Origin: a virus
Virus record (IMG/VR): IMGVR_UViG_3300031463_000011
Span: 1-48,595 of that record
DNA: 48,595 nucleotides
Strand: one strand, 5' to 3'
Part shown: positions 9,499 to 46,441 of the stretch, in pieces
How the letters are laid out: the number at the start of each line of letters is the position of its first letter
Position numbering within the stretch: position 1 is the stretch's first letter
The notes under the pieces: generated by a model
What the model saw: only the letters and a program-made list of their open reading frames with translations
Told to the model about the DNA's origin: nothing
Databases searched by the model: none
Position numbers and translations under genes: made by a program

Positions 9499-10977
9499 AT
9501 GGCATGTCCAGATGGTTGGATAAAAGCCTGCGATTTTCCGCAGTTTTTTGTAAGTCAAACACCTAAGTTTGACCAAATCATAATGGAAGATATTCGGCCA
9601 ACTGACGGTTGGCTATTGAACGTCTCAACGGGCACTGTACCTATGGGTACACCGCCTGAAATTACACAAGATCGGTTTCGATCTGTTTGGCCTAATATAA
9701 CGAAACAATGGTCACGTGTACTTAACCCTGGAGTAGGATGTATAGGTAACCCATGCGATCCACCTGAATATCGGATTGGTTGGGGCGCAGACAGGCTAAC
9801 ATATTTTGCGTTGGAACAGACTTGGGCAACACCATTGCTCTGTTACAACCAAGATATGCATGTTACACATGCAGTTGAGCATATAGCACAAATAATCAAT
9901 TCAATACTGCGTCCGGCAACGACAATCATATCCAGTGCATTGTTACGTAAAGTAGCGATATACTGGGCAGGTAAAAAGTTCGCTGCAAACGCGCGCATGG
10001 ACGAGTTTACCTATCAATGGTCTGTTGCGGATACAGACGGAGACGGTGTTGCAGACGAAGAGATTTACTTTGATTGTTCGGTGCCGCCGTCGCGAATATT
10101 CCATCTTGTACCGCAGATGTTGCAAAGGCGGTTTATGCCGTTGATGCAAAAGGGTTACGCTGGTAAAAATCCGTTCAAGGAAACCACACCATTTATTGAG
10201 CTTGTAACTGACATAGACACATGTTGGTTCCTAGACAAGCTCGGTGGCAGTGCGGCTGTTACAGCAGATGTAACACCGAATGTAGCAGCTAACTGGCGCT
10301 TTATTGAATGGGGTGCAGCTAACAAATACTGGCGGTACGGATTTTCGGGTCAACTAGGTAATTTCATGATTCGGGTTGATCCGTTCGGACTTAGGTTTAA
10401 CTATGTAACTGACCTCGGCCCGAGTGCACATGGCGGCAATGGTAACCGGTACAGGTACCAGATTGTGTTGCCGTATGTGAACAATATTACCACAGGTGCA
10501 GGTGGTGCGGCTGGAATAGGCGCAGATGAAAATCCAGATTATCAAGATGCTGAATTTGCAATCTCGATAATCTGGCATAAACGCGCCATGGAACTACTTG
10601 TACCTGACGCTACACCTATCCATCCAGATATGCCATATGGCCATCGTGATTTTGGTGGTAAATGGCGGTTCTTGATGCACGATTTAGGTGCTGATGTTGA
10701 CGGTAAACCGATCAAGAACGATTGGGAAAACAAAGGCAGATTTGGTGCATGGTTTAAGTATTATCCAAGACCATTGTACACTGAATTTGCTGAAGTATTG
10801 CTGCACAAACGTGAACCGATGATAGTGCCTGAGATTGATCGTTGTACGCCGTCACCTGGTTATCCAGCGCAACGGTACAGCAGTGAATTACCAGAGTGTC
10901 CGTTACCAACTGATTACCAAGGACAATGGGGTACAGGTGTACCTTCGGGTGACAATGCCGGGCCATTGAATAGGTGA
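9499..10977 (+). CDS. Major capsid protein
   Basis: The 492-residue protein directly follows the scaffold gene and has the size and composition of an HK97-fold capsid protein. Candidate fold parts are an N-terminal arm (MACPDGWIKACDFPQFFV), a long central helix near residues 130-165 (VEHIAQIINSILRPAT) and several Gly-rich loops with a GNGNRYRYQIVLPY strand. Eight or more cysteines are scattered through the chain, which is many for a capsid protein and could allow disulfide or metal links. The N-terminal QFFV-x-QTP-xx-DQ motif is shared with the small protein at 4876. The gene lies between two structured RNA regions. Assignment is by position, length and overall character. Confidence 0.7.
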   Translation: MACPDGWIKACDFPQFFVSQTPKFDQIIMEDIRPTDGWLLNVSTGTVPMGTPPEITQDRFRSVWPNITKQWSRVLNPGVGCIGNPCDPPEYRIGWGADRLTYFALEQTWATPLLCYNQDMHVTHAVEHIAQIINSILRPATTIISSALLRKVAIYWAGKKFAANARMDEFTYQWSVADTDGDGVADEEIYFDCSVPPSRIFHLVPQMLQRRFMPLMQKGYAGKNPFKETTPFIELVTDIDTCWFLDKLGGSAAVTADVTPNVAANWRFIEWGAANKYWRYGFSGQLGNFMIRVDPFGLRFNYVTDLGPSAHGGNGNRYRYQIVLPYVNNITTGAGGAAGIGADENPDYQDAEFAISIIWHKRAMELLVPDATPIHPDMPYGHRDFGGKWRFLMHDLGADVDGKPIKNDWENKGRFGAWFKYYPRPLYTEFAEVLLHKREPMIVPEIDRCTPSPGYPAQRYSSELPECPLPTDYQGQWGTGVPSGDNAGPLNR

Positions 10978-10994
10978 GGCGATGAGGTAGTTGA

Positions 10995-11074
10995 GTTGTG
11001 CAGCTAAACAGTCGCAGAGCGTAAAACAGAGCGGGGATATAGTGGTTGTATTTACTGTATCCCCGCTCACAACC
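10995..11074 (+). ncRNA. Strong hairpin with possible H-type pseudoknot after the capsid gene
   Basis: A perfect 11-bp stem (11029-11039 with 11058-11068) extends by a wobble pair and agt/act to about 15 bp, with a loop ggttgtattt (11044-11053). The loop bases ggttgt are exactly complementary to acaacc at 11069-11074, directly after the stem, so an H-type pseudoknot is possible. An alternative partner for cacaac is gttgtg at 10995-11000, which would close the whole element. There is no U-run, so intrinsic termination is unlikely. It may protect the capsid mRNA 3' end or control the next gene. Confidence 0.5.
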
Positions 11075-11087
11075 TAAAGATAGATTT

Positions 11088-11435
11088 ATGCCAAATCGAA
11101 CTAGACCTAACATTGGGAATATTGAACCCACTGAAAGAGATTTAGATTTGTACAATGATATTGGGCCTGAAGAACGTTCAGGTGAACCTGAGGCTGAACA
11201 AGAGACAAGTTATAATACAACTGTTATCCCGCGTGAAATACTGCCTGGTGAACATACGGTAGGTGAAACTGTCACATTCAAGATTGTAGGTGTCTACGAA
11301 GACGAATACGAGATTGAACCTGTGACAGAACAACAGACATCACCTGAATCATCTAAATCACGTGAATCAACTGAATACACTGAACCGACTGAAACTGAAT
11401 CTACTGCAATGGAAGGCTTCAGTGCAATAGATTAA
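11088..11435 (+). CDS. Acidic hypothetical protein, 115 residues
   Basis: Translation from the ATG at 11088 (MPNRTRPNIGNIE) gives 115 residues rich in Glu, Thr, Pro and Ser, probably largely disordered. An in-frame ATG at 11046 lies inside the hairpin downstream of the capsid gene and is less plausible. The TTATG start context resembles other rightward genes of this phage. The C-terminal third is a repetitive Ser/Thr/Glu stretch (TEYTEPTETES). It may be a head-associated or scaffold-accessory protein; I recognise no family. Confidence 0.55.
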   Translation: MPNRTRPNIGNIEPTERDLDLYNDIGPEERSGEPEAEQETSYNTTVIPREILPGEHTVGETVTFKIVGVYEDEYEIEPVTEQQTSPESSKSRESTEYTEPTETESTAMEGFSAID

Positions 11436-11443
11436 GGCCGGTT

Positions 11444-11653
11444 ATGGAAATCAATGTTGACGGGCTAATTAACATTGGGGTCTTAATAGTTGTTGTAGGT
11501 TATTTTTTCAGGTTTGAACACCGAGTTGCCGAACTTCAATCTGAATTTGAACATCGGATGACGCGGGTTGAAACTAAACTAGATGTTTTATTGAATGGCC
11601 AGAAAGCAAATGCTGCCGAACTGAAAGATTCAATTAAAAAGTTAGCTCATTAA
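11444..11653 (+). CDS. Small membrane protein with coiled coil
   Basis: The 69-residue protein has a single hydrophobic segment (LINIGVLIVVVGYFF, about residues 8-22) followed by a charged coiled coil of about 45 residues. This N-terminal-anchor plus cytoplasmic or periplasmic coil layout resembles phage accessory lysis proteins and inner spanins, but it is too short for confident assignment. It leads a cluster of small membrane proteins (12202, 12419, 12814), with a leftward gene inserted between. Its 3' end overlaps the 3' end of the leftward TnpB-like gene by 20 bp. Confidence 0.55.
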   Translation: MEINVDGLINIGVLIVVVGYFFRFEHRVAELQSEFEHRMTRVETKLDVLLNGQKANAAELKDSIKKLAH

Positions 11654-12185
11654 CTTTCAGTGGTGCATTAGGGTAAAAGTCACGTAATCTTTTACCGAAA
11701 TTATAGGTATTCTGGTACAATTCAACTAACCAACCAGAATCGTTAAGCCGTAAGATAGCGAATGTAGCTGGGTCACGTCTTAACTTACGAATAATTTCGT
11801 CTGTAAGATCGCATAGTGCTAATACACGACCTGCAATTGTAGCAAGTGAAATTAGCCTATCGTCAGCAAACAGGCTAAAGACCCACATATCATATTCGAT
11901 TGAATCAGGTTTAAACTGGTAATATTCACCGTAACGTTTAAGTGCACCTGCAGCACGTCGAATTGCGGTATCAGCTAAATCGGCTGGTAACTTAAAGATT
12001 TGTCGTATTGGATAATAGACTTGATGATGTAGCCTGATATCATTTGAAATACCCATGTTAACCGCAGTTTCAAAAGCAAACTTTGTAGCTGCACAATAGA
12101 CAAGTACAGTTTGGTACAACAATAAATTATCTTTATACCTGGGCCAGACAGTTAATGTGACAGGCTTGCAAATTGAATCGAACAT
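11634..12185 (-). CDS. Stand-alone TnpB N-terminal-like protein without RuvC domain
   Basis: The 183-residue protein resembles the N-terminal (wedge plus REC-like) half of IS605-family TnpB. In order it has an amphipathic strand with KPVTLTVWPRYKDN; a helix with YCAATKFAFETAVNMGISN; LHHQVYYPIRQIFKLPADL near residues 52-70; AIRRAAGALKR near 74-84; then SIEYDMW, LISLATIAGRV and a final strand near LRLNDSGWLVELYQ, which parallel the beta-strand segment preceding RuvC in TnpB. No RuvC catalytic segment (GxDxG, later Glu and Asp) follows: the gene ends there, and its 3' flank is occupied by the opposite-strand gene 11444. It is uninterrupted and reads in the phage's base composition, so it looks kept rather than decaying. 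In TnpB this part contacts the guide RNA and the DNA. Divergent to the holin-like gene by 16 bp. Function unknown. Confidence 0.6.
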   Translation of the reverse strand: MFDSICKPVTLTVWPRYKDNLLLYQTVLVYCAATKFAFETAVNMGISNDIRLHHQVYYPIRQIFKLPADLADTAIRRAAGALKRYGEYYQFKPDSIEYDMWVFSLFADDRLISLATIAGRVLALCDLTDEIIRKLRRDPATFAILRLNDSGWLVELYQNTYNFGKRLRDFYPNAPLKVNELTF

Positions 12186-12201
12186 GGCGTAATTTTGTAC
12201 T

Positions 12202-12486
12202 ATGATATCGGAAGTTCAAAAGAACGTAAGTTTGTTATGGTTAAACCCGCATTTACGATGGGTATTTGCATTATTAATAATAAGCGAACTAGGGGCGATT
12301 TGGTTTCCACATTTCCAAGAACAGTTCGCTGCAACACAGAAAGTATTTTTATTGTATGGATTAGCAGTTGCGGCTAATTCAGCTCCAGACGATTACAATA
12401 AAATTACTGAACCGAAAAATGAAAAGTCAAATGCACCTGATAAAACTGATCAAGCACCTCGGAATTCCGAGGTGTCCAAAAATTAG
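12202..12486 (+). CDS. Holin-like small membrane protein
   Basis: The 94-residue protein has two hydrophobic segments: WVFALLIISELGAIWF (about residues 19-34) and VFLLYGLAVAANSA (about 48-61), followed by a polar, charged C-terminus. This topology fits a two-segment (class II-type) holin, which permeabilises the inner membrane in lysis. It overlaps the following lipoprotein gene by 68 bp, typical of lysis cassettes. The C-terminal codons contain a perfect 20-bp palindrome (12455-12474) encoding PRNSEV. No endolysin neighbour was recognised, so the holin role is tentative. Confidence 0.55.
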   Translation: MISEVQKNVSLLWLNPHLRWVFALLIISELGAIWFPHFQEQFAATQKVFLLYGLAVAANSAPDDYNKITEPKNEKSNAPDKTDQAPRNSEVSKN

Positions 12487-12817
12487 ACACATAAGCAATA
12501 TTGTAGCGGGGATTATATTGGCCATATTAATTTTAGGCTGTACAACGCAGGGTGCTAAAGTTGTTGCGTACAGGACACTTTGGACGACGCAAACGACTGT
12601 TAATACAGCATTTGACTCATATTTACGGTTAATTGTGATGGGTGAAGCGCCTACAAATTATTTACCGCAGATAAGTCAAGCATATGACAGTTTTCAAGAT
12701 GCATTTAAGCTAGCTGTATTAATAGCTGAGACTGATCCAGCTAACCCATGTTTATCTAATATTACTGTACAAGCTACAGAATTAATCAAAACAATTGAAC
12801 GGGCTAAACAAAAATGA
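12419..12817 (+). CDS. Lipoprotein, spanin candidate
   Basis: I start at the ATG at 12419, giving 132 residues; an upstream in-frame start at 12368 is possible. A hydrophobic stretch (IVAGIILAILILG, about residues 28-40) ends in an ILGC lipobox with Cys41, then TTQGAKVV. This is a bacterial lipoprotein signal, although the 27-residue n-region is unusually long and basic. The mature part is about 92 residues and helical. Its nesting inside the upstream holin-like gene is reminiscent of Rz/Rz1-type outer spanins. A true internal start near the hydrophobic core might give a more typical signal. Membrane-anchored lysis accessory protein is the best guess. Confidence 0.5.
   Translation: MKSQMHLIKLIKHLGIPRCPKIRHISNIVAGIILAILILGCTTQGAKVVAYRTLWTTQTTVNTAFDSYLRLIVMGEAPTNYLPQISQAYDSFQDAFKLAVLIAETDPANPCLSNITVQATELIKTIERAKQK
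12455..12490. promoter_or_regulatory. Palindromic element, copy 1 (in holin-like gene)
   Basis: Bases 12455-12474 are a perfect 20-bp palindrome, cacctcggaattccgaggtg, with an EcoRI site at its centre. It is followed by an imperfect inverted repeat gtgtc-N9-gacac at 12472-12490. The same element occurs at 30523-30557 and 45539-45595. The palindrome lies in the coding region of two overlapping genes, so a regulatory or centromere-like role is more likely than chance. The gene at 32349 encodes a ParB-like protein. Confidence 0.65.
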
Positions 12818-13053
12818 ATTGGAATACACTTGCACTTTTAATAGTTGAATACGGGTTACCTTTTGCTGAAAAGGTATGGGATTTTTATCAGCAAAAAAAA
12901 GAGCCTACACTGGATGATTTTGCGCAGTTACGTGCGTTAGCAAATCAAAATGCAGCGCAACGTATGGCAACAATGATAGCGTTACATGGACAAAATCTTA
13001 ACGAAGAAACAAAGAATATTTTGTTACAGTTAGCTGGTGGCAAAACAGCTTAA
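12814..13053 (+). CDS. Hypothetical protein, 79 residues
   Basis: The ATG overlaps the upstream stop (ATGA). The protein has a short hydrophobic N-terminus (LALLIVEYGLPF, about residues 6-17) and then a helical, polar body. It resembles the many unassigned small proteins found next to phage lysis genes. It could be a peripheral membrane or anti-holin-like factor. The next gene (large terminase) faces it on the other strand, with a 13-bp gap between the two stop codons. Confidence 0.5.
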   Translation: MNWNTLALLIVEYGLPFAEKVWDFYQQKKEPTLDDFAQLRALANQNAAQRMATMIALHGQNLNEETKNILLQLAGGKTA

Positions 13054-13066
13054 AGGTAGACATGGA

Positions 13067-14914
13067 TCAATTCAATTGATAGGTCAACTGACCGCTAGTC
13101 CAGTATTGTCTAGATTTTTCGTGCAATGTCCGCAACCATGTTTGTTCAGTAGACAATTGTTGTTGATTGCCAAGTTTCCTGATCACGAAACCGAGTTTAC
13201 GTGCACCATAAAAACCAACTGCAATTGCATCGGCAATATCAGGTGACCGACCGATTTTTTCTTTCATTTTATGTTTCGGTTCAACTTCAATCTTGTTCCC
13301 GGCAACAATTGTCCATTCGCGATTACAAAATTCTTCAATTACTTCATCGGTAAACCCACGTACTTGCCCGGCTTCAACAGCAAGTCGAACACTAAACCAT
13401 AGTTCAGTGATAAATTTTGAATAGTACTGGTCACACGGAACTTGAATTTCAGCACTGACCATGTCTTGTGACGGTTTACCGCCACAATCTACTGGGTTAA
13501 CACGATTTGACCATAAACGCGCAAATGCAGTTACTAAACTTGTACGCATACCGGCGTCAAAGAAGAAATTTTCAGGTGGAATATTACGATTTTTGCACTG
13601 TTCCATGACAAATTCCACAATTTGATCTTCAGGATCATCTGACACAGCTTTAATTGGTATAACCATGTAATCAATTAATGCTATAATCTGACCTGTATTA
13701 GGCCTATGGACAGATTGACTGATTAAACTTGAGACATTAAAGGTTGAATTATCCGAGGACGCTTCAATACCAAATTGTAACTCGCCAAAGATACATCTGT
13801 CACCACCTACTGCGCGGTACGCAGCATCTAGAAAACCAACTTTAATTCGGTTATTATCTGCCCAATGCGGTTCTTTTGTTGCACCGAATTTAATGCACAT
13901 TTGCCGCGTTAACACACGTCGTGAGCCTTGACCGCGCGGCATACGGCCTTCGTTCATCATGTGAAACCAAAGACTGTCACGACCGTAAAATTCTAAGTCG
14001 CGGTCAATAGCGTCTTTGGTAATTAATGGTGCGCCTAATTTACCATCTAGATTAGGTGAGTCTGATCCCCACAACTGAATACAAATACCGTGCGGCCGTT
14101 TAATTTCCCACGTTTTGGTTCCTGGTTTTTGGTCTATGCCACCGTCCCAACCACCTAAATGTGCAGCAGGTTCAGCTAATATACCGAGAGGATCGTTGAT
14201 ATCTTTGGGGTTACCTAACCCGACAAACTTAAAATCTGGGTTTTTGTCTAGGTTAGACAATCCATCTATAATTGCATGTGGTAAAAGGTGTAATTCATCT
14301 GCTATAAGTCGAATGCGTTTATTTTTTATACCGGCAAATTCGCCTATACCAATAAATGTTTCACCGCGTTTAGCTGCTACACCAACTAAACCGTTACGAA
14401 AATCACGTGCTTCAACGTCACTTGTTTTTGGATCAGAAACAATCCGTTGCCGACCTTCAATTAAATGACCAGGTAACCATGGACAACGCCGTTTAGCTAA
14501 TGTGAAATGATGTTTTATTTCACCCCAAATACGTTCTTCAAGTCGTTCGCGTGTAGTTGAACAGCATAGTACAGTTGTGCATTCAGGCCAACAAAACCAA
14601 TCTGCTAATACATTAGTTGCGGCTGAATGTGTTTTACCACTTGATGCTGGCCCAATCTCAATCACAGTCCGATAGTTAAGGAAACATTCCATTTCTAGCT
14701 GGTTCCATTTATGCCAAATTTTTTCTGGCCAAAGTAATTCTTGTAACCGCCGAAAATGGAAAGCTAATCCTTTGCCCACAATCCGGTTATCGTCTTTAGA
14801 CTGACGCCATTTACCGCCCCTACGAATCATTGCAATTTCAATTGCAACGGGGTTAATACCAACTGGCCATTCTAACCCGTACAATTCAATTTTGCGTTTT
14901 TTAGATTGCGCCAT
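13067..14914 (-). CDS. terL: Terminase large subunit
   Basis: I choose the ATG at 14914 (MAQSKKRK); a TTG four codons upstream is possible. The 615-residue protein has a Walker A GPASSGKT near residues 88-95 and a Walker B IADE near 204-207, forming the packaging ATPase. The C-terminal part keeps nuclease-like features: a GFLDAAY segment near 365, an FFFDAGMR segment and SPDIADAIAVG close to the end, matching RNase H-like terminase nucleases. It works with the portal to drive DNA into the procapsid. It is leftward and converges with the lysis genes, while its neighbours on both sides are rightward. Divergent to 14973 across 58 bp. Confidence 0.9.
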   Translation of the reverse strand: MAQSKKRKIELYGLEWPVGINPVAIEIAMIRRGGKWRQSKDDNRIVGKGLAFHFRRLQELLWPEKIWHKWNQLEMECFLNYRTVIEIGPASSGKTHSAATNVLADWFCWPECTTVLCCSTTRERLEERIWGEIKHHFTLAKRRCPWLPGHLIEGRQRIVSDPKTSDVEARDFRNGLVGVAAKRGETFIGIGEFAGIKNKRIRLIADELHLLPHAIIDGLSNLDKNPDFKFVGLGNPKDINDPLGILAEPAAHLGGWDGGIDQKPGTKTWEIKRPHGICIQLWGSDSPNLDGKLGAPLITKDAIDRDLEFYGRDSLWFHMMNEGRMPRGQGSRRVLTRQMCIKFGATKEPHWADNNRIKVGFLDAAYRAVGGDRCIFGELQFGIEASSDNSTFNVSSLISQSVHRPNTGQIIALIDYMVIPIKAVSDDPEDQIVEFVMEQCKNRNIPPENFFFDAGMRTSLVTAFARLWSNRVNPVDCGGKPSQDMVSAEIQVPCDQYYSKFITELWFSVRLAVEAGQVRGFTDEVIEEFCNREWTIVAGNKIEVEPKHKMKEKIGRSPDIADAIAVGFYGARKLGFVIRKLGNQQQLSTEQTWLRTLHEKSRQYWTSGQLTYQLN

Positions 14915-14972
14915 CGAAACTTGCAAAACTGTTCAGACAAAAATACATTTACTAAAGGCTAATGACAATAAT

Positions 14973-22122: not shown

Positions 22123-25100
22123 ATGCCTGTTTACGAGGTAGGCCTACGCGATGGTCGTGTCTATACAGTACGAGCAGACCGGCCATTGACAGAAGATGAA
22201 TTGCTTGCTGCAATTGAACGGTACCAATCTGGCCCGGTTGAACCTGAACCAGGTCAAAAAGAAACTGGACCGGCTGGGCCAATTTTACCTATTCGCACTG
22301 ATACAGACCAAATTGCGCCAACTGTACCCTACGCTGAACAGTTAAGTGAACTTCGACCTGCTGTTGCGGCTGCATTTGGTACCAATTATGCAGGTCGTCA
22401 ACCAGGCGGTGGATTAAGTGACATCGCAGCCGGATATGAAGCTTTAACAGGAACTGAACGTCGTGCTGCAACTGAACTTGCGCGCGGCTTATTACTTTCA
22501 GCTCTTGGCCCGGTTACACCTTCAGGTGTAGTTGTACCACCGCGTCCTGAGACTGAACAATTTCGTGAATGGGTGCTGAGCCGTAAACCTGAAGAGATTG
22601 AACAATTAACTGAAATTTTCCCGCGACCTGAACAATACCCGACTTATGAAGAGTTTCGTACTGCGCATCCTGAGCTGACAATTAGTAAGACTGGGATTGA
22701 ATGGGCTGTACCGATATCAGTTGCGAAGGTTATTTCAAGTGTAGGTAATTATTTCACTAGTCCACAAGGTATAGTTGAATTATTCGGTGTAGCTGTACCT
22801 GGGGTTAATTTTGCCGTGTTAGGCAAATGGATAACTGACATGGCAAAAGCGGGTTATTTAAGTATTGGAGATTTACAAGATGCAGTTGAAAAAAGGGATT
22901 GGCAACGTGTTTCAGACGACATAATAGGTGGGCTAGCGTCACTTTGGGGTATTCGCGCAGTTAAAGGTGATATAGCTAGACGCGCTGCGCGTGAGGCACC
23001 TAAAACACAACAAGAACTTGTTAAACAAGCCGAAGAAAGGAGTGTACAGGAATATGCCACTGAAAAGAGGTACGAGCCGACAGACATTCGAGCAGAATCT
23101 GAGAGAACTGTTACGGGCAGGGTACCCGATGAGACAGGCCCTCGCGATTTGTTACAACCAACAGAGACGCGCGCGGCCGTCGAAGGCGCGCCGGAGCAGG
23201 CGGCGCCGACAGGACCAATAACTGCGCCGGCGCCTGAGACAGTTCAGGCTGAACTAGAACGTAAAGCGCAAGCTTTAGCTGAACGCGGTCCGGTCAGTGC
23301 TACTGCGCACGAAACTGCAGTTAACATTGACCGGACACAAGATGTCAGTGCTGCAAGCCAATGGCTACGTGCTGTACGCGACTTATCACCTCAGTTATAC
23401 AATACACTTGAACAAATTGCGCGTGGTAAAGGTGTAAGTGCTGAAGCAGCAGAATTATTATCACATGAAGTCGGTGACGATCCTGCCTTATACAATTTAT
23501 ATGAGAAATACGGTTGGAGCAAAGATTTTTGGGCTGACGTCTTTGAACAGGAATCGCATTTACCTCCAGTTTCAGCCGAACCCTTACCTGAAGACATTGC
23601 ATTTGCAACTAAACCAAGTGAACCACCTAAACCTGGCACAGTAGAAATTCGACCTGCCATACGCGCATTTATCGAAACGTCACCAGGCAATAAACGTGCA
23701 GTATATTTTATTGGTGGCGCAACGCATTCTGAGATCATCCTTAAAAATGCAAAAGCTGCGGCTGAACTAGGTGTATTATCCGATCTATGCGCTGAAGAGA
23801 ATCGTGGATTTTTAATCAATGGCCAATGGCACACGCGCGCATCTGTAAAAGAACGGTTTGGTGTTGCAACGTCTGAAGAACTAATTGAACGTGGTTACAT
23901 TGAACCTGAAAACGCTAGGGCTGCTCAACCGTTAGCAACTGAAAAAGATAAACTTGATTTACGGCAACAGACTATACCTGAAGGTGCAGTTGTAACTGAT
24001 GCAGGGTTAATTGCGCGTATTAACAAGTTAATTTCTAAGTTTAGCGCAATTAAATTACCTGAAGCACAAAAAGATGTAGATGCATTATATGACGCATTAG
24101 GCCGACGTCAGGAAGATAATTTAGTGTTTTTAGAGGCGTTATTACCGCGTGGTGAACTTGTTCGTAGCCGGGAAGATACATTATCGGCCTATAATGTAAT
24201 GCGACAGATGAACGAGCGCGGGTTTTTCGGCGATTTACCATGGTTACAACGCCTCGTTGATTCAATGCTTAAGTTAGGTGATCCCGGTACAACAATTTCA
24301 ACTGGTTACTATAGACGGTTAAATTGGCCGAAGAATGTCATTGCATTTTTCTCTAATAGAGCGAACCACATTGCAATTAACCCTGACATATTCGCTGCAC
24401 GTAACCGTGAATGGAGCGCATTACAAATAACATTAGCACATGAATATTTACATGCATTAACACGCAGTGCACGTGTTTGGGGTGCAAATCCAAAATTACG
24501 AGTTGAACTACGCAACATTTTTGAAACGCTCTGGAACGATCCTGATATAGGTACTGTCTTACGATCAATCAATTGCGATAACGAATTTGAGCTTATTTCA
24601 TACGGTTTAACTGATCCGCGCTTACGCGAGATACTTAATCAAAAGACAATTAAACCGCCAACAGCTAAACGTGGTGTTATTCGGACTGCCTTAGAAGAAA
24701 TCTTAAATTTAATAGGCCGTTTACTTGGGTTAAAGGATGTAACCGTCTTAGATAGACTGTATCGGATAACTGAATATTACGGCCGTAAAACAATTGCAAT
24801 TAACGAAACTTCAGTCCGGCGGTTACTAGGTGCAATTGAGAATATTGATCCGACTGATCTACCGCCGCGTGAACAATTGTACGTGGTAGATTTCATGCGG
24901 CGCGCTAAACAGCCTAAAGAAGACGAAAATCAATTGTTATTAGATTTAGCTGATAAAGGTCAAATATCGTTCGGCACGAAACTTGAACCTACAGGCGAAA
25001 AACCTGTTGAACAGATTAACCTTACTGAAGCTAAACCTATTGAACCGCCAGCAGCTACACAGTTAGAACGGGATATTTACAATGAAATTAAAAAGACGGC

Positions 25101-28100
25101 TGAAAGTTCGCATGAACTGCCTACACTTAAGACGATCAATTTTTTAATCGAGACGAAGTATAAAGATATCGAAATTAATCGGTCACAGTTATTTGATGCT
25201 TATGCAAGTGCAGTTTGGAAATATTTAATGGATGCACCGGGTGAAACACTTAAGGCAATTGGCGAAAAATACAATTTATTAGGCTTATTACGGTTAGGCC
25301 GGGCGATTATACCTGATGCACCTGGCCGGTTATCTGAACAGATAGCCAAACTAACTCAAAATCCGGTTATACAACAGTTGTTAGGCCCGATGTTTGAAGA
25401 CCCGGCGCAATTTAGCAAAATCCGAAATAAACGGATTCGACAAATGTTAATTGATTTGTTCGGGCCGATGTCATCTGGGCAACGTCGTAGATTAAGTTTA
25501 ATTCGTCAGATTGGGCTAAAAGTTTTACAGGAAGCTGAACCTGAAATACGTGTACGGACAAGTGGCGCATTATCACCTGAACAAGTTGGTCAACCGATAC
25601 GCAGTAATGTACCTGCCTTTTTCGACATTCGCCCGCAAGATTTACAGACTGTAATTGACACTGGTCAACTTGTTGCAGATGCGCGTGTATCTGGTAAAGC
25701 GCCTAATGTAACACGACGATTAACTGCATTAGTTGATACACGTAGTGAAAAAGCGCCAGTAATTGTAGTTAGTACATGGTACAATGCAGGTGCAGATGCA
25801 ATTTATGTAGCTGAACCTGGATTAACAAGGCCAGGTACACTTAATGTACCTCTTGAATCTGTCATGCAACGCGGTTACAAACCGATTGCATCAATTTTAC
25901 TTGAAGAACCTGTTCGTAATTACCGCTACAAGTTCAATTCATTAACTGATTTTGAACAATCATTTGCAGTTGATGCGCGTGACCGTGCACGGCGTCAACA
26001 GTATTCACCTGAAGTATCAATTTACGGGGCTGAACGGCGTGAAGAATTACCACGTCGGGTTAAGGTTGAACGATTAGAAAGTGCATTAGCACTTGAACAT
26101 ACACCGGGCATACTTGAACGGATGTTAACTGAGCCTATTACGGCTATAACAGACCGTGAAGCACAAGCGATTTGGGACTTTTACAAAGAAACAGCCGGTG
26201 AACGGTTAGACGATTATTCGCGCGTGTTAGCTGCAATGAGCGAGATGGGCCGCACACGCGCATTAAACATAACTGTATTATCCGGGTTCCGTAAGCTTTT
26301 TAAGGAATACGAACGAGCGTATCCATACGCATCCATACAAGAACTCGCCGAACGCGTTTTTCATGATTTATACGATTTACATGTACGCAACGTTAAACCT
26401 GACCAAATCTATGAAGAAATTAAACGAAGGGGTCCTAAAGAGGTTAGTGAAACTGCTCGGGTTAGACCCGAACAGACCGTTATATCCCCATACGAAGAAC
26501 TGGCGAGCCAAGAAACAATTGAAGGGCCAGCCGAAATAAGTCGGCCTAAAGCATTTGAACCTGAACCTGAGCTTGGGCCAATTTCACCTGATGAAGGGAT
26601 AGACCCGAGCTATGAAGGTATAGATTTCATGCAATTACCTGTTCAGGTTCCACCTGCAATTGAAGAACGTGTTAACCGCGCTAATGAAGCAATTACATTT
26701 CGTATTGCTCGGGTTAAACAGCGTATAAACAATTTAGGTGCCGTAATAAAACGTTGGCCGACTATGCAGAATTTACGGCGGTACGCTGATGGTTTGTACA
26801 ATGAAATTGGTGCAGTTGCAAATCAATCTGCAAATGCAATCAGGATATTTGCTGGTGCAGATAAAAATAAACAGAAACGACTTGAAGCTGTTAAAGCTGT
26901 AATTGCTTGTGGTCAAAAGGTAACAGACGAACGTGGTAATCCAACAGTTAAATTCGACAAAAACCGGCTAGATCAACTTAAGTTTTATTGTCAGCAGGCG
27001 ATGACTCAAGCTAAAAAGTTAATTGATAAAGCTGACAAGTCACCAGCCGAAGCTGTCATAGGCCGTGCATGGTACGATAGTGCAGCGCGGTTATTAGACG
27101 AAGTTGAATGGGCTGAAAAGAACTGGGACGATCCAATCTTACAGAATCTAGCCTATAAAGTTTTACAGGAATCACAACGGATTTACGACGTTGAAACCGT
27201 ATTCGGTGCGCAATATTCGCGCCACGTAAATTATTTACCTTTACGATATGAATCTTGGCCGTGGGACGCCAAGTTAATGGCTAATGCAGAACGGTTAATT
27301 GGTGTACGATTTAAGGCGCCTAAAGCATTTGCTAATCCGTATGAAGCAATTAAAGTCGGCCCATACATTTTACGGTCGTACGATGTAGCGGATTTATTCC
27401 AACATAGGTGTAAAGCTGGTATTCGACCCGTAGCAGAACGTGCTTGGGTAAACTTACTTAAAAATGTCAATGATCCGGTGACAATGATGCCAATTGCTAA
27501 GGAACCGGTTATACGGCAAATTGGCAAAACTGAAGCTAAAATGTGGGTTTCACCGGATGAAAAACAGTATTCATTAGTTTACATTCATCCTAACAGTCGT
27601 CCGATAGCAGTTCTTGTCCCGTACGCACGCGCTTTACAGACAATTTTAGCGCGTTCAGTTGTGCCGCGGTTACCTGTTGCAGGTGAAACGTTACGGTTAG
27701 CTAGCATGATTAAACATGGTATCCTGCTGATGTGGGATACATATCATCCATTTCGGATGACATATCTAGCTCTTGCAACACCTGAATTATGGGCAAAAAC
27801 AAAAATGATTAAAGCGCATGAAGCTGGCTGGGCAGCATTAAACATTCGACCTAACCTATTAGATAATGCAGTTAAAAACGGTGTAATATCACAAAAGGCA
27901 GCGGATTGGTGTCGGCAACAACGTGTGTTACGAACGGCTGAAGGTGAACAGCCGATGACAAACCAACGTATTTTACTCGAATTAAATCGGCGCGGGTTAA
28001 ACATAGTTTATTGGCAAGATGCACTTTATCGGCATGTTATTCGTGAGATACCTATCTTAGGTAAAGTACTCGAAGGCACAGTTGGGCGGTACAATGATTG

Positions 28101-29328
28101 GATGTTTAGTCGCTACATTGCAGGTTTATTCGGTACACTTGCAGTTGAATCGTTAGTTAAGTACAGCGCAAAACATCCTAATTTACCGTTTGAAAAGTTA
28201 ATGCGCGATGTTATTACCGATTACAATGCAATCGTAGGTAACATGGGTCGGCAAGGTATTTTCCGTAACCCGAACATACGCGATATTGCATCTATCTTTT
28301 TACTTGCACCGATGTGGCGTGAAGGGTTGTGGCAGAAAGATTTACGTACATTAGGTCGGTTATTAGGCGCAGGCCAAGTTACACGTCGGCTGGGTATGCG
28401 TGCTATTCCAGGGTTAGGGCCGTTAGGTACAACTGTTATACGCGGGTTAGCTGGATGGTTCGTGTTAAGTCAAATTATTAATGCAATCACACGCGGCCAA
28501 AGCACATTTCAAAATCCGGAACCGGGCAAAAAACTTTCAGCTTGGATACCAACTGATGATGAAGGCCACGGTGTATGGTTTGAACCATGGTCAATTTTCG
28601 GTGAAGCACTGGGCCAATTTTTACATTTACTTGAGACGCAACCCAGTGTGTACGCTGCTATACGTAAAACAGGTATAAATACATTGGGGCCATTCGGTCG
28701 GATGGCTTATGTGTTAGGTACGGGCGAAACTGAACGAGGCGAAGTTATTACTTCAACAGGCCGAGTTGCAACTGAAGCACTATCAAATTTAGCGCCGTTA
28801 CCGATTTCTTTAGGTGCACCTGTTAAAGCGTTAGCGCATGAAGTTGCACCTACTAAAGTACAAAAATTACAACCAGGGTTACTAGCCCAACGTATGTTAG
28901 GTACAGTAGGTGTCAAGGTATCACTCGACGAAGGCCCTGAACGTCGTATTCAGACTTTAGCAGATGAATTTGTCCGTGAACATAATTTGAAAAAAGAGAC
29001 AGGCTGGCAACTTGAGCCGACAATTGAACCTAGCTACGCAAAGTTACGTAGTGCATTACGATCGGATGATATTGAAACTGCACGAAAAATTTATAAACAG
29101 TTACGTGCACAACGGCCTATACGATATCTTAAAGACGGATCAATCCATGACCCGATGATATCTGAGATGGAACAGTGGGCGCGTCGGCCTTGGACAGGAT
29201 CAATTGATAATGAACACATGTTTATAATGAGTCTGTCACCTGAATTACTTAAGCAATATAACGAAGCTAACCTAGCGCGCTATCATGTATTTAATAAGTT
29301 TTTGGAACTTGTAGCTGAACAAGATTAG
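22123..29328 (+). CDS. Giant polyvalent internal virion protein with metallopeptidase motif
   Basis: This 2,401-residue protein begins MPVYEVGLRDGRVYTVRA, typical of large injected virion proteins. A linker around residues 300-370 is Pro/Glu-rich and is dual-coded. Residues 773-777 are HEYLH, an HExxH zinc-peptidase signature, followed by NEFELISYGLTDPR (820-833), matching the downstream Glu region of polyvalent-protein zincins. Near 1,900-2,260 there are conserved-looking segments (WDTYHPFRMTYLALATPELW; FRNPNIRDIASIFLLAPMWREG) of the LPD38-like type seen in large polyvalent proteins. It probably forms part of the ejection core, enters the host and may modify or cleave proteins there. Domain boundaries are approximate. 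Confidence 0.65.
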   Translation: MPVYEVGLRDGRVYTVRADRPLTEDELLAAIERYQSGPVEPEPGQKETGPAGPILPIRTDTDQIAPTVPYAEQLSELRPAVAAAFGTNYAGRQPGGGLSDIAAGYEALTGTERRAATELARGLLLSALGPVTPSGVVVPPRPETEQFREWVLSRKPEEIEQLTEIFPRPEQYPTYEEFRTAHPELTISKTGIEWAVPISVAKVISSVGNYFTSPQGIVELFGVAVPGVNFAVLGKWITDMAKAGYLSIGDLQDAVEKRDWQRVSDDIIGGLASLWGIRAVKGDIARRAAREAPKTQQELVKQAEERSVQEYATEKRYEPTDIRAESERTVTGRVPDETGPRDLLQPTETRAAVEGAPEQAAPTGPITAPAPETVQAELERKAQALAERGPVSATAHETAVNIDRTQDVSAASQWLRAVRDLSPQLYNTLEQIARGKGVSAEAAELLSHEVGDDPALYNLYEKYGWSKDFWADVFEQESHLPPVSAEPLPEDIAFATKPSEPPKPGTVEIRPAIRAFIETSPGNKRAVYFIGGATHSEIILKNAKAAAELGVLSDLCAEENRGFLINGQWHTRASVKERFGVATSEELIERGYIEPENARAAQPLATEKDKLDLRQQTIPEGAVVTDAGLIARINKLISKFSAIKLPEAQKDVDALYDALGRRQEDNLVFLEALLPRGELVRSREDTLSAYNVMRQMNERGFFGDLPWLQRLVDSMLKLGDPGTTISTGYYRRLNWPKNVIAFFSNRANHIAINPDIFAARNREWSALQITLAHEYLHALTRSARVWGANPKLRVELRNIFETLWNDPDIGTVLRSINCDNEFELISYGLTDPRLREILNQKTIKPPTAKRGVIRTALEEILNLIGRLLGLKDVTVLDRLYRITEYYGRKTIAINETSVRRLLGAIENIDPTDLPPREQLYVVDFMRRAKQPKEDENQLLLDLADKGQISFGTKLEPTGEKPVEQINLTEAKPIEPPAATQLERDIYNEIKKTAESSHELPTLKTINFLIETKYKDIEINRSQLFDAYASAVWKYLMDAPGETLKAIGEKYNLLGLLRLGRAIIPDAPGRLSEQIAKLTQNPVIQQLLGPMFEDPAQFSKIRNKRIRQMLIDLFGPMSSGQRRRLSLIRQIGLKVLQEAEPEIRVRTSGALSPEQVGQPIRSNVPAFFDIRPQDLQTVIDTGQLVADARVSGKAPNVTRRLTALVDTRSEKAPVIVVSTWYNAGADAIYVAEPGLTRPGTLNVPLESVMQRGYKPIASILLEEPVRNYRYKFNSLTDFEQSFAVDARDRARRQQYSPEVSIYGAERREELPRRVKVERLESALALEHTPGILERMLTEPITAITDREAQAIWDFYKETAGERLDDYSRVLAAMSEMGRTRALNITVLSGFRKLFKEYERAYPYASIQELAERVFHDLYDLHVRNVKPDQIYEEIKRRGPKEVSETARVRPEQTVISPYEELASQETIEGPAEISRPKAFEPEPELGPISPDEGIDPSYEGIDFMQLPVQVPPAIEERVNRANEAITFRIARVKQRINNLGAVIKRWPTMQNLRRYADGLYNEIGAVANQSANAIRIFAGADKNKQKRLEAVKAVIACGQKVTDERGNPTVKFDKNRLDQLKFYCQQAMTQAKKLIDKADKSPAEAVIGRAWYDSAARLLDEVEWAEKNWDDPILQNLAYKVLQESQRIYDVETVFGAQYSRHVNYLPLRYESWPWDAKLMANAERLIGVRFKAPKAFANPYEAIKVGPYILRSYDVADLFQHRCKAGIRPVAERAWVNLLKNVNDPVTMMPIAKEPVIRQIGKTEAKMWVSPDEKQYSLVYIHPNSRPIAVLVPYARALQTILARSVVPRLPVAGETLRLASMIKHGILLMWDTYHPFRMTYLALATPELWAKTKMIKAHEAGWAALNIRPNLLDNAVKNGVISQKAADWCRQQRVLRTAEGEQPMTNQRILLELNRRGLNIVYWQDALYRHVIREIPILGKVLEGTVGRYNDWMFSRYIAGLFGTLAVESLVKYSAKHPNLPFEKLMRDVITDYNAIVGNMGRQGIFRNPNIRDIASIFLLAPMWREGLWQKDLRTLGRLLGAGQVTRRLGMRAIPGLGPLGTTVIRGLAGWFVLSQIINAITRGQSTFQNPEPGKKLSAWIPTDDEGHGVWFEPWSIFGEALGQFLHLLETQPSVYAAIRKTGINTLGPFGRMAYVLGTGETERGEVITSTGRVATEALSNLAPLPISLGAPVKALAHEVAPTKVQKLQPGLLAQRMLGTVGVKVSLDEGPERRIQTLADEFVREHNLKKETGWQLEPTIEPSYAKLRSALRSDDIETARKIYKQLRAQRPIRYLKDGSIHDPMISEMEQWARRPWTGSIDNEHMFIMSLSPELLKQYNEANLARYHVFNKFLELVAEQD
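23054..23221 (+). CDS. Nested small basic protein in an alternative frame of the giant gene
   Basis: A 55-codon gene lies wholly inside the giant virion gene in another frame. It starts at ATG 23054, preceded by AAAGGAG about 11 bases upstream, a good Shine-Dalgarno although most rightward genes here have none. The product reads MPLKRGTSRQTFEQNLREL, then LRAGYPMRQALAICYNQQRR and a very basic tail. It matches the common small phage protein style 'MPLKxGxSxxTxxxNIxELxxxGxPxxQAxAIA'. The host frame here encodes a Pro/Glu linker that tolerates overprinting, and the local DNA is unusually GC-rich. An upstream in-frame ATG at 22991 adds an unrelated-looking stretch. Likely real; function unknown. 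Confidence 0.7.
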   Translation: MPLKRGTSRQTFEQNLRELLRAGYPMRQALAICYNQQRRARPSKARRSRRRRQDQ

Positions 29329-44426: not shown

Positions 44427-44870
44427 CTATTGCTGCGCCGGCGCCGATTCAGCCGGTACGTCCGTTGCGGGCGGCTCAATGCCCGCAACCGTCCTCAAGA
44501 TTTGCCACTGTTCAGGCGTCAGCGACGCCCTGAGCAGCGCGCTCATCAAAACCTGCCGCTCATCTGCGGCAGGCTTGAGTGTAACGGTGACCCGCCCAGT
44601 GACTGTACGGCGAACTTTGACACAGCCGTACCCGTCGGCAACCAAGGCGGCTGTATATGCAGCCGCACGCCGGCCCAACTCACGCTCGAGCCGCGCGCGA
44701 ACATCCCGCGCCTTTTCGCCGTGTGCGCTCTTCAAGTCATTGCCATTCTTTGAGGCAATCGGTAATGGCCGGATCTCCACCGCCCTAACCTTGCCGGTCT
44801 TGTCTAGCACCTCACGGTGCTGGATGCCGTTCATGCCATCCACAAGTCTTTGCAACTGTTGTGTCTCCAT
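44427..44870 (-). CDS. GC-rich hypothetical protein, 147 residues
   Basis: The first gene of the leftward block. The product is charged and Arg/Ala-rich (ARLERELGRRAAAYTAALV near residue 60) with a strand-rich middle (CVKVRRTVTGRVTVTLKP) and a Pro/Ala C-terminus. Its codon and base composition are more GC-rich than neighbouring genes, suggesting recent acquisition or a different origin. An AAGAAAGGAAAAAG leader precedes the ATG, and a hairpin-rich leader plus a TATAAT box lie upstream. Family not recognised. Confidence 0.5.
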   Translation of the reverse strand: METQQLQRLVDGMNGIQHREVLDKTGKVRAVEIRPLPIASKNGNDLKSAHGEKARDVRARLERELGRRAAAYTAALVADGYGCVKVRRTVTGRVTVTLKPAADERQVLMSALLRASLTPEQWQILRTVAGIEPPATDVPAESAPAQQ

Positions 44871-44933
44871 CGACTTTTTCCTTTCTTATCTCCGTGTGCG
44901 GTCCGGGGATTTAACGGTTTTTAACTTTCTCCA

Positions 44934-44975
44934 GTCTAGCCCGCACCGCTAGACTGTGGGGAAAATCCTTTCCCC
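44934..44975 (-). other. Two leader hairpins upstream of gene 44427
   Basis: On the minus strand ggggaaa pairs with tttcccc (44958-44964 with 44969-44975), and gtctagc pairs with gctagac (44934-44940 with 44948-44954). They lie between the -10 box and the start codon, and may protect the 5' end or control translation of the first early gene. Confidence 0.5.
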
Positions 44976-44976
44976 T

Positions 44977-44982
44977 ATTATA
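44977..44982 (-). promoter_or_regulatory. Possible -10 box of the leftward early promoter
   Basis: A perfect TATAAT occurs on the minus strand at 44982-44977. No convincing TTGACA is found 17 bases upstream, so this is either a weak or activator-dependent promoter or a phage-specific one. It would start transcription near 44970 into the leader hairpins and the leftward block. Confidence 0.4.
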
Positions 44983-45109
44983 AACACCGTGATATCTAGT
45001 CCCTAACCCAAAATTAACATTGGCCTATCCATCCTTGCCTTGCCTTTCCTTGCCCTTGCCTTAAAACCTCATCCTTGCTTTCAATATTAATTTGCCCTAT
45101 CTTCAACCT

Positions 45110-45409
45110 ATGCCGAAATATCCGAAAGCTTATTACACAGCTTGCCAAATACAAAATATCCTAATGCAGAAAATTTCGGACCCGAGAACATCCGCGCTGG
45201 CAGTCGCTCAACTGAGCAGAGCTTGGAATGAAATAGAAGAACGAAAACGCATTTTAGCTGGTAAACCATTGCCTAAATCCGTTGATGTAACCAAGCTAAA
45301 AGAACAAAAACAAACCGCTAAACTCTTGGGTATACTCTACAACCCAACGCAAGCTGATTTAGGCCAGCCTGAAACAATAGATAGACTTGCGCCAGAGAAT
45401 GGTGACTAA
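45110..45409 (+). CDS. Small helical protein, possible terminase small subunit
   Basis: Translation from ATG 45110 (MPKYPKAYYTACQIQ) gives 99 residues, mostly helix with a basic middle (WNEIEERKRILAGKPLP). It is rightward while the gene to its left is leftward. Small terminases are often short helical DNA-binding proteins of this size, but the large terminase is far away and no HTH is clear. Other possibilities are a replication or regulatory protein next to the origin. The stop precedes the origin region. Confidence 0.35.
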   Translation: MPKYPKAYYTACQIQNILMQKISDPRTSALAVAQLSRAWNEIEERKRILAGKPLPKSVDVTKLKEQKQTAKLLGILYNPTQADLGQPETIDRLAPENGD

Positions 45410-45538
45410 CAAAAAACTTTGGGAACTCTAACCAAAAAAATCGTAAACGGACACCCCACGGGATATGGTCAGGCCCTGTGCGGCACCGTGCTTTGAATAA
45501 CACACCCACTTTTCACCGCGTCACAATTTCCCCGGCAC

Positions 45539-45595
45539 TGTCCATTTTTTAGACACCTCGGAATTCCGAGTTGTACATTTTTTAGACACCTCGGA
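45539..45595. promoter_or_regulatory. Palindromic element, composite copy 3 near the origin
   Basis: A tgtcc...gaca inverted repeat (45539-45555), then a near-complete palindrome cctcggaattccgag (45556-45570) with one mismatched flank, then a second tacattttttagaca plus cacctcgg half-unit (to about 45593). The arrangement is a direct repeat of the flank-plus-palindrome module seen at 12455 and 30523. It lies 13 bases before the DnaA boxes. Confidence 0.65.
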
Positions 45596-45607
45596 GAAAG
45601 CGTGGAT

Positions 45608-45649
45608 TGTGAATAAGTTGTGAATAAGCTGTGAATAACTTGTGAATAA
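45608..45649 (-). other. Four tandem DnaA boxes
   Basis: TTATTCACA on the minus strand (tgtgaataa on the plus strand) occurs at 45608-45616, 45619-45627, 45630-45638 and 45641-45649, exactly 11 bp apart. Each fits the DnaA-box consensus TTATNCACA. The 11-bp spacing puts them on one face of the helix. An AT-rich region follows directly, as expected for an origin opened by host DnaA. Confidence 0.8.
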
Positions 45650-45690
45650 CTTCCTCTCTATATATATAGAGATTACTCTAATATATAGAA

Positions 45691-45736
45691 TACTATGTAG
45701 TATAGATAACTCTACTATGTAGTATACTATGTAGTA
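45691..45736. repeat. AT-rich palindromic repeats beside the DnaA boxes
   Basis: Three copies of tactatgtagta (45691-45702, 45713-45724, 45725-45736), each with tacta/tagta arms. Together with ctctatatatatagag at 45655-45670 they form the low-melting part of the origin. They may bind an initiator or simply unwind. Confidence 0.6.
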
Positions 45737-45973: not shown

Positions 45974-46441
45974 TTAGGTTAAGGCATAGTGATTTAGGTT
46001 TGGTGAAGGCTGATAGAGTTCGACTGGGATATCTAGGGAAGAGAGCAAGTTAAGCAAGATAGGCTGGAGGAGGTGCCAATTTAACTTACCGAGGCCGCAG
46101 CCGAGGGCTGGGACAGCTAATGAAGAGACATTCCAGAGTTTATAATTAGCGAGTAAGAACTGCAAGCCATTAACGATAGCATTTAAGTTTGCTGGATTAC
46201 GCCAATGGAATTTAGTTGGGAAGACGAGAATCCAGGGTAAGGACGTACGTTTATATAGGTAAGGCTGCCCGAGCTGTATTTGGTGCTGTGCACAACGCAA
46301 GCGATAATCATTGAACATATCTGGGAAACGTTTTTTAAACTCGCGTGCGATACCTTTACCCATGACACCGACACAATTGACTGGGTTAACCCAAGTTTGC
46401 GCATTAGAATTGAACAAGTTACCTGAGACAATTTTGACCAT
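45974..46441 (-). CDS. Macro-domain protein (DarG-like ADP-ribose binding or hydrolase)
   Basis: The 155-residue protein starts MVKIVSGNLFNSNAQTWVNPVNCVGVMGKGIA (residues 1-32), the macro-domain phosphate and ribose loop, with GKGIA conserved; WILVFPTKFHWRNPANL near 69 and VPALGCGLGKLNW near 108 complete the family pattern, closest in style to DarG-type macro domains. Such proteins bind or remove ADP-ribose, including from DNA. No ADP-ribosyltransferase (DarT) toxin is adjacent. It lies next to the origin and probably counters a host ADP-ribosylating defence or controls NAD-derived signals; the role is inference. Confidence 0.85.
   Translation of the reverse strand: MVKIVSGNLFNSNAQTWVNPVNCVGVMGKGIAREFKKRFPDMFNDYRLRCAQHQIQLGQPYLYKRTSLPWILVFPTKFHWRNPANLNAIVNGLQFLLANYKLWNVSSLAVPALGCGLGKLNWHLLQPILLNLLSSLDIPVELYQPSPNLNHYALT

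What the first reader, a model, noticed from the sequence alone, without database searches (positions are those of the whole stretch)
11634..12185. Stand-alone TnpB N-terminal domain without RuvC nuclease in a phage lysis region
The 183-residue leftward protein resembles the guide-contacting N-terminal half of IS605 TnpB in order and spacing of segments (YCAATKFAFETAV, LHHQVYYPIRQ, AIRRAAGALKR, SIEYDMW, LISLATIAGRV, GWLVELYQ) and stops where RuvC would begin. The reading frame is intact and the 3' flank is another gene, so this is a small domesticated form rather than a visible remnant. Seen: the motifs and missing nuclease. Known: TnpB-derived nuclease-dead proteins (TldR) act as RNA-guided repressors in some phages. 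Inference: this may be a mini version used for RNA or DNA binding.
Basis: partly seen in the sequence, partly recalled or inferred. Interest (0 to 1): 0.75.

Follow-up and report, generated by a model that had tools for sequence, protein, structure and literature searches.

The report
Phage TnpB front half without nuclease
An uncultured phage carries an intact 183-residue gene that keeps only the front (DNA- and guide-gripping) half of the RNA-guided nuclease TnpB; the cutting half and the guide-RNA gene are gone, and the half that remains keeps its fold but has lost much of its nucleic-acid-binding charge, so it is more likely a repurposed small protein, or else a late remnant, than a working guided system.

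Summary
The ORF at 11634-12185 (-) is intact, and residues ~8-157 are homologous to the WED-REC-WED half of TnpB (tblastn down to E 1e-7 against annotated TnpBs). AlphaFold2 with 35 TnpB relatives gives pLDDT 88, and Foldseek's top hits are Cas12f and TnpB WED-REC. The protein ends where RuvC begins. No RuvC, TNB, TnpA or Rfam RNA was found in the 48.6-kb record. Nearly all relatives are full-length TnpBs; among 29 virus-borne members of the clade none is cut at this point. Thirty-five related phages (same capsid gene; same capsid-terminase order in nearly all) carry no TnpB gene, so this is a recent accessory insertion in a variable slot.

The protein lies on a very long branch (4.2 changes/site; median 0.38). 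It kept the hydrophobic core (39/42 positions) but lost 10 of 16 conserved basic positions, residues otherwise (nearly) invariant in the clade, and most net charge (+1 versus about +13).

Best reading: a TnpB-derived module kept by the phage for a guide-free binding role (0.58). Main rival: a decaying remnant (0.30). The TldR-like, RNA-guided reading is not supported: the guide gene and half the RNA-binding surface are missing. Function needs experiment.

The parts
11634..12185 (-). Stand-alone TnpB-derived WED-REC protein, 183 aa (residues 8-157 homologous to TnpB; residues 158-183 an unmatched, poorly structured tail)
12144..12161 (-). Codons for WED strand beta-1 (residues 9-14 of the model)
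   Evidence: secondary structure
11922..12137 (-). Codons for the REC helices (residues 17-88), including the YxxxR and LPADLADTAIRR segments
11712..11903 (-). Codons for the second part of the WED barrel (residues 95-158), ending at the WED/RuvC boundary
   Evidence: domain limits of ISDra2 TnpB from PMC10097598
11444..11653 (+). [quoted passage not shown] no Pfam or PHROG match
12202..12486 (+). Small divergent ORF (94 aa, membrane-like by reading), 16 bases from the start of the TnpB-derived gene; no family match
9499..10977 (+). Conserved capsid-type gene (60-67% identical in 35 related phage contigs), left anchor of the variable slot; 'major capsid' is inferred
13067..14926 (-). Terminase large subunit (49-61% identical in relatives), right anchor of the variable slot

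Best explanation
The gene is a TnpB that lost its RuvC/TNB half and its guide-RNA region. It then stayed in the phage as a small folded WED-REC protein under selection for its fold but no longer for TnpB function (exaptation). The most likely mode of action is guide-independent: the WED/REC cleft, which in TnpB grips the TAM DNA duplex, or the surrounding surface now binds a partner (duplex DNA, an RNA, or a protein such as a host TnpB/Cas12-type effector), and the protein acts as a small accessory factor of the phage. Shown here: homology, fold, missing nuclease, intact frame, core constraint, loss of basic surface, and absence from related phages. Inferred: that the gene is expressed and useful, and what it binds.
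For: Homology to TnpB residues ~8-157. Confident WED-REC model (pLDDT 88.4, pTM 0.83) with Foldseek hits to AsCas12f WED-REC (E 3.9e-6, TM 0.71) and to ISDra2 TnpB. No RuvC, TNB or TnpA in the record and no Rfam RNA. Intact frame with phage-like codon-position composition and codon usage. Branch 4.2 changes/site against a median of 0.38. In a neutral simulation, under 1% of frames stay open once identity to the parent falls to about 0.38. Hydrophobic core kept at 39/42 columns; 20 of 23 substituted core positions stay hydrophobic (p about 8e-4 against a one-step neutral baseline), while only 6/16 conserved basic positions remain. Net charge +1 against a mean of +13 and a minimum of +5 in non-haloarchaeal relatives. 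N69->D and R101->W, at positions invariant or nearly so in the clade. Among 29 virus-borne clade members no other N-only form (26 full-length, 2 run off a contig, 1 frameshifted RM378).
Against: It is a single instance: none of 35 related phages has it, so dN/dS on orthologues is impossible. Part of the divergence and core conservation may date from when the gene was still full-length. Decayed or truncated TnpBs are common in genomes. The gene was picked out because it is open, which weakens the open-frame argument. Promoter-like matches in the region are no more than chance gives, and no ribosome-binding site is evident by reading.
Confidence: 0.58

Rival explanations
1. It is a decaying remnant: an IS605-type tnpB (or tnpB-only element) landed in the variable slot, lost its 3' half by deletion, and the N-terminal half is still open by chance or because truncation was recent. 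It has no function.
For: Nearly all homologues are full-length, so the gene arose by truncation. Truncated and frameshifted TnpBs are frequent. The gene is absent from all 35 related phages, so it is not old in the phage lineage. A second N-only ORF (L038, 173 aa, 47% identical to a full-length TnpB over 178 residues) exists in an unrelated bacterial contig.
Against: Losses at clade-invariant positions with an open frame and a conserved core are hard to get by brief neutral drift. Codon composition matches the phage genes. The other highly truncated copies checked are mostly 77-85% identical to full-length TnpBs or are frameshifted, unlike this one.
Confidence: 0.3
2. It is a miniature TldR-like RNA-guided repressor that still binds a guide RNA and represses a target without cutting.
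For: TnpB-derived nuclease-dead RNA-guided repressors exist in phages (PMC13418256). The retained half includes the TAM-duplex cleft and part of the RNA-binding surface of TnpB (PMC10097598).
Against: TldRs keep the RuvC fold; here it is missing. The omega-RNA gene overlaps the tnpB 3' end, which is lost. No Rfam RNA in the window. 10 of 16 conserved basic positions and most net charge are lost.
Confidence: 0.05
3. It is a phage counter-defence protein: a nuclease-less decoy that interferes in trans with a host TnpB or Cas12-type effector by competing for guide RNA or TAM sites, or by dimerising with the effector.
For: It is phage-borne, accessory and in a variable slot. The best structural matches include the second protomer of the Cas12f dimer (chains 7wju_B, 8dzj_B), which shows that a WED-REC half can take part in a dimer. 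The phage also carries a DarG-like protein, a possible counter-defence gene.
Against: No direct evidence. The host and its effectors are unknown. Loss of basic surface argues against competition for RNA. This is a sub-case of the best explanation.
Confidence: 0.07

Closest known systems
TnpB of IS200/IS605 elements, the clade with the LSANLAxRAI and PTSxDYDAR motifs (e.g. R. marinus plasmid TnpB, Thermus phage MN1 transposase)
   Same: WED-REC-WED order and fold over about 150 residues; core and several invariant residues (Y57, R61, L66, A68, L70, A74, R77, D99, R120)
   Different: No RuvC, no TNB zinc ribbon, no omega-RNA region, no TnpA partner found; at most about 31% overall identity; N69 and R101 replaced; net charge +1 instead of about +13
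TldR (TnpB-like nuclease-dead repressors)
   Same: TnpB-derived, lacks nuclease activity, phage-borne
   Different: TldR keeps an inactivated RuvC and a guide RNA (PMC13418256); here RuvC and the guide region are missing
Cas12f, second protomer of the dimer
   Same: Best Foldseek matches are WED-REC parts of AsCas12f (TM 0.71)
   Different: Cas12f has RuvC and TNB and acts with a guide RNA; sequence similarity is to TnpB, not Cas12f
IshB-like small proteins of the IscB lineage
   Same: As I recall, small partial derivatives of an OMEGA nuclease that lack RuvC
   Different: A different lineage and different domains; named only as an analogy. PMC12477157 mentions IshB-like proteins; the domain content is from memory
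L038, N-only TnpB ORF in a Blastocatellia metagenome contig
   Same: 173 aa, ends at the WED/RuvC boundary, followed by an unrelated gene
   Different: Much closer to full-length TnpB (47% to the R. marinus copy) and keeps the clade's conserved motifs by reading; low-coverage contig, so truncation is not certain

Membership tests
TnpB (IS200/IS605 RNA-guided nuclease) | N-terminal WED-REC-WED module | tested here: met
TnpB (IS200/IS605 RNA-guided nuclease) | RuvC nuclease domain with D-E-D residues | tested here: not met
   protein ends at the boundary; no PF01385 match in the record, no RuvC similarity by tblastn
TnpB (IS200/IS605 RNA-guided nuclease) | TNB / zinc-ribbon insert | tested here: not met
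   no PF07282 match
TnpB (IS200/IS605 RNA-guided nuclease) | omega-RNA from the tnpB 3' end and right element | tested here: inconclusive
   the 3' end that would encode it is gone and no Rfam match; an RNA elsewhere cannot be excluded
TnpB (IS200/IS605 RNA-guided nuclease) | TnpA (Y1 transposase) in the same record (many tnpB-only elements lack it) | tested here: not met
   no PF01797 match
TldR | RuvC domain present but catalytically inactivated | tested here: not met
   no RuvC domain at all; definition from PMC13418256
TldR | adjacent guide RNA and guided DNA binding | not testable with these tools
   no guide region found by Rfam; needs RNA co-purification
Cas12f | RuvC-TNB half | tested here: not met
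   no RuvC-TNB half
Cas12f | association with a CRISPR array and cas genes | not tested
   CRISPR arrays were not searched for across the whole record

The most novel reading that the evidence does not exclude
A phage has turned the WED-REC half of TnpB into a free-standing, guide-free binding protein, for example a decoy or antagonist of host TnpB/Cas12-type effectors: a third route of TnpB domestication besides Cas12 and TldR.
Probability: 0.12. Interest if true: 0.75.

Novelty: new variant of a known kind. Interest (0 to 1): 0.42.

Why it matters
TnpB is the ancestor of the Cas12 nucleases, and known reuse keeps the whole architecture (Cas12) or an inactivated nuclease plus guide (TldR). 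A stand-alone WED-REC protein kept under selection would show that the DNA/RNA-gripping half can live on its own, and would give a very small module to study. If it blocks host RNA-guided nucleases, it would be a counter-defence route made from the nuclease itself.

Tried and rejected
Family libraries (Pfam, PHROGs, NCBIfam, PADLOC) and a PDB sequence search with the single protein gave no match or a chance match to fibrinogen; the profile A5 also finds nothing in PDB sequences. A single-sequence AlphaFold2 model was poor (pLDDT 36) but gives much the same order of helices and strands. A RuvC/TNB half elsewhere in the window as a trans partner: only noise-level hits and no Pfam match. A search for orthologues with the protein itself, the terminase and the portal as single queries found none; the capsid gene opened up the phage family. 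Apparently short TnpB ORFs in Verrucomicrobiota genomes: of three fetched, two run to or nearly to a contig end and one continues into the RuvC half beyond its short frame. Inverted repeats around the gene do not form a convincing IS605 end pair. IS605 left or right ends were not modelled explicitly.

Full report
What was checked. The ORF at 11634-12185 on the minus strand is intact and 183 codons long. Library searches at family level are empty, but tblastn against phage and plasmid records finds only TnpB-related genes: Thermus phage MN1 transposase (E 3e-6), Rhodothermus phage RM378 (5e-5), R. marinus plasmid TnpB (1e-7), Gloeobacter (4e-7), Allomeiothermus, Thermus and haloarchaeal TnpBs. 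The multiple alignment places residues ~8-157 on the TnpB N-terminal half, with 13 columns invariant in the eight-row set (Y57, R61, L66, A68, L70, A74, R77, Y98, D99, L114, G119, R120, L135).

Fold. AlphaFold2 with an alignment of 35 relatives gives pLDDT 88.4 and pTM 0.83: one strand, REC helices, then a beta-barrel with a helix, and a low-confidence tail from ~residue 160. Foldseek's best hits in the PDB are the WED-REC parts of AsCas12f (E 3.9e-6, TM 0.71), then other Cas12f, a viral Fanzor2 and ISDra2 TnpB. In ISDra2 TnpB the WED domain is residues 1-12 and 117-176, REC 13-116, and RuvC starts at 185 (PMC10097598), so the window protein stops just where RuvC would begin. Caveat: the alignment consists of TnpBs, so the model inherits their fold; the single-sequence model is poor but has much the same order of elements.

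What is missing. There is no RuvC, TNB, TnpA or known structured RNA in the 48.6-kb record (the three Pfam searches rang in their control genomes). The record may be a fragment; many relatives are 52-59 kb, so a few kilobases may be absent.

Relatives. Two collection scans gave 15 virus loci and 76 genome loci; most hold full-length TnpBs, and the shorter ones examined are frameshifted, cut at contig ends, or truncated copies, mostly close to full-length TnpBs. A wider virus scan gave 29 loci: 26 full-length, 2 running off the contig, and RM378, which is frameshifted. One other N-only ORF that ends at the same boundary was found, in a Blastocatellia contig (L038, 173 aa).

The phage. The gene at 9499-10977 is 60-67% identical in 35 phage contigs, and the terminase follows on the opposite strand as in the window in nearly all that reach it. 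None of the 35 carries a TnpB-like gene (the same search rings in three positive controls). The interval between the two genes varies from 1.3 to 7.6 kb. The TnpB-derived gene is therefore a lineage-specific insertion in a variable slot.

Selection or decay? The protein's terminal branch is 4.2 changes per site against a median of 0.38. It keeps only 19 of 31 highly conserved columns, the lowest of 38 rows, and replaces N69 (invariant in the clade) and R101 (R in all but one). Its hydrophobic core is as well kept as in full-length TnpBs (39/42), while 10 of 16 conserved basic positions are gone and net charge falls to +1. Codon-position composition matches the phage genes. In a simple neutral simulation fewer than 1% of frames stay open once identity to the parent falls to ~0.38. 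These points favour a retained fold with changed function. They are not proof: some divergence may predate truncation, and the gene was noticed because it is open.

Mechanism. In TnpB the TAM duplex lies between WED and REC, whereas the RNA scaffold is held mainly by WED plus RuvC, and its gene overlaps the tnpB 3' end (PMC10097598). The retained half could thus at most keep the DNA cleft. With its basic surface reduced, guide-dependent action is unlikely and a guide-free binding role, to DNA or to a protein, is the best guess. TldRs, by comparison, keep an inactivated RuvC and a guide RNA (PMC13418256). I found no published stand-alone WED-REC protein in five searches of the held open-access library, which does not cover most subscription journals.

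Noticed in passing
45974-46441 (-): A 155-aa protein matching DarG (macrodomain antitoxin of DarTG; E 1.8e-56 in PADLOC); no DarT was looked for. A possible counter-defence gene of the phage.
   Followed up: no
L103-L137 (IMG/VR contigs): The window belongs to an uncultured phage family of at least 35 contigs (many about 52-59 kb) with a conserved capsid-type gene and a terminase on the opposite strand; tblastn of the window's capsid-type gene and terminase against the 50,697 INPHARED phage records found nothing.
   Followed up: partly
10977-13067 and the same interval in relatives: The capsid-terminase interval is a variable slot, 1.3-7.6 kb, with different small genes in different phages.
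   Followed up: partly
L038:1408-1929: A second N-only TnpB ORF (173 aa) in a Blastocatellia metagenome contig, ending at the WED/RuvC boundary and followed by a sigma-factor-like gene (by reading).
   Followed up: partly
L003/L020/L179 (Rhodothermus phage RM378, record 44481-45708): The RM378 tnpB is broken by a small deletion that shifts the frame; R. marinus plasmid pRMAR01 carries a 96-98% identical intact copy.
   Followed up: partly
12457-12476: A perfect 20-base palindrome (CACCTCGGAATTCCGAGGTG) near the end of the small ORF at 12202-12486; role unknown.
   Followed up: no
22123-29328 (+): A 2401-aa single ORF; only PADLOC was tried on it, with no match.
   Followed up: no
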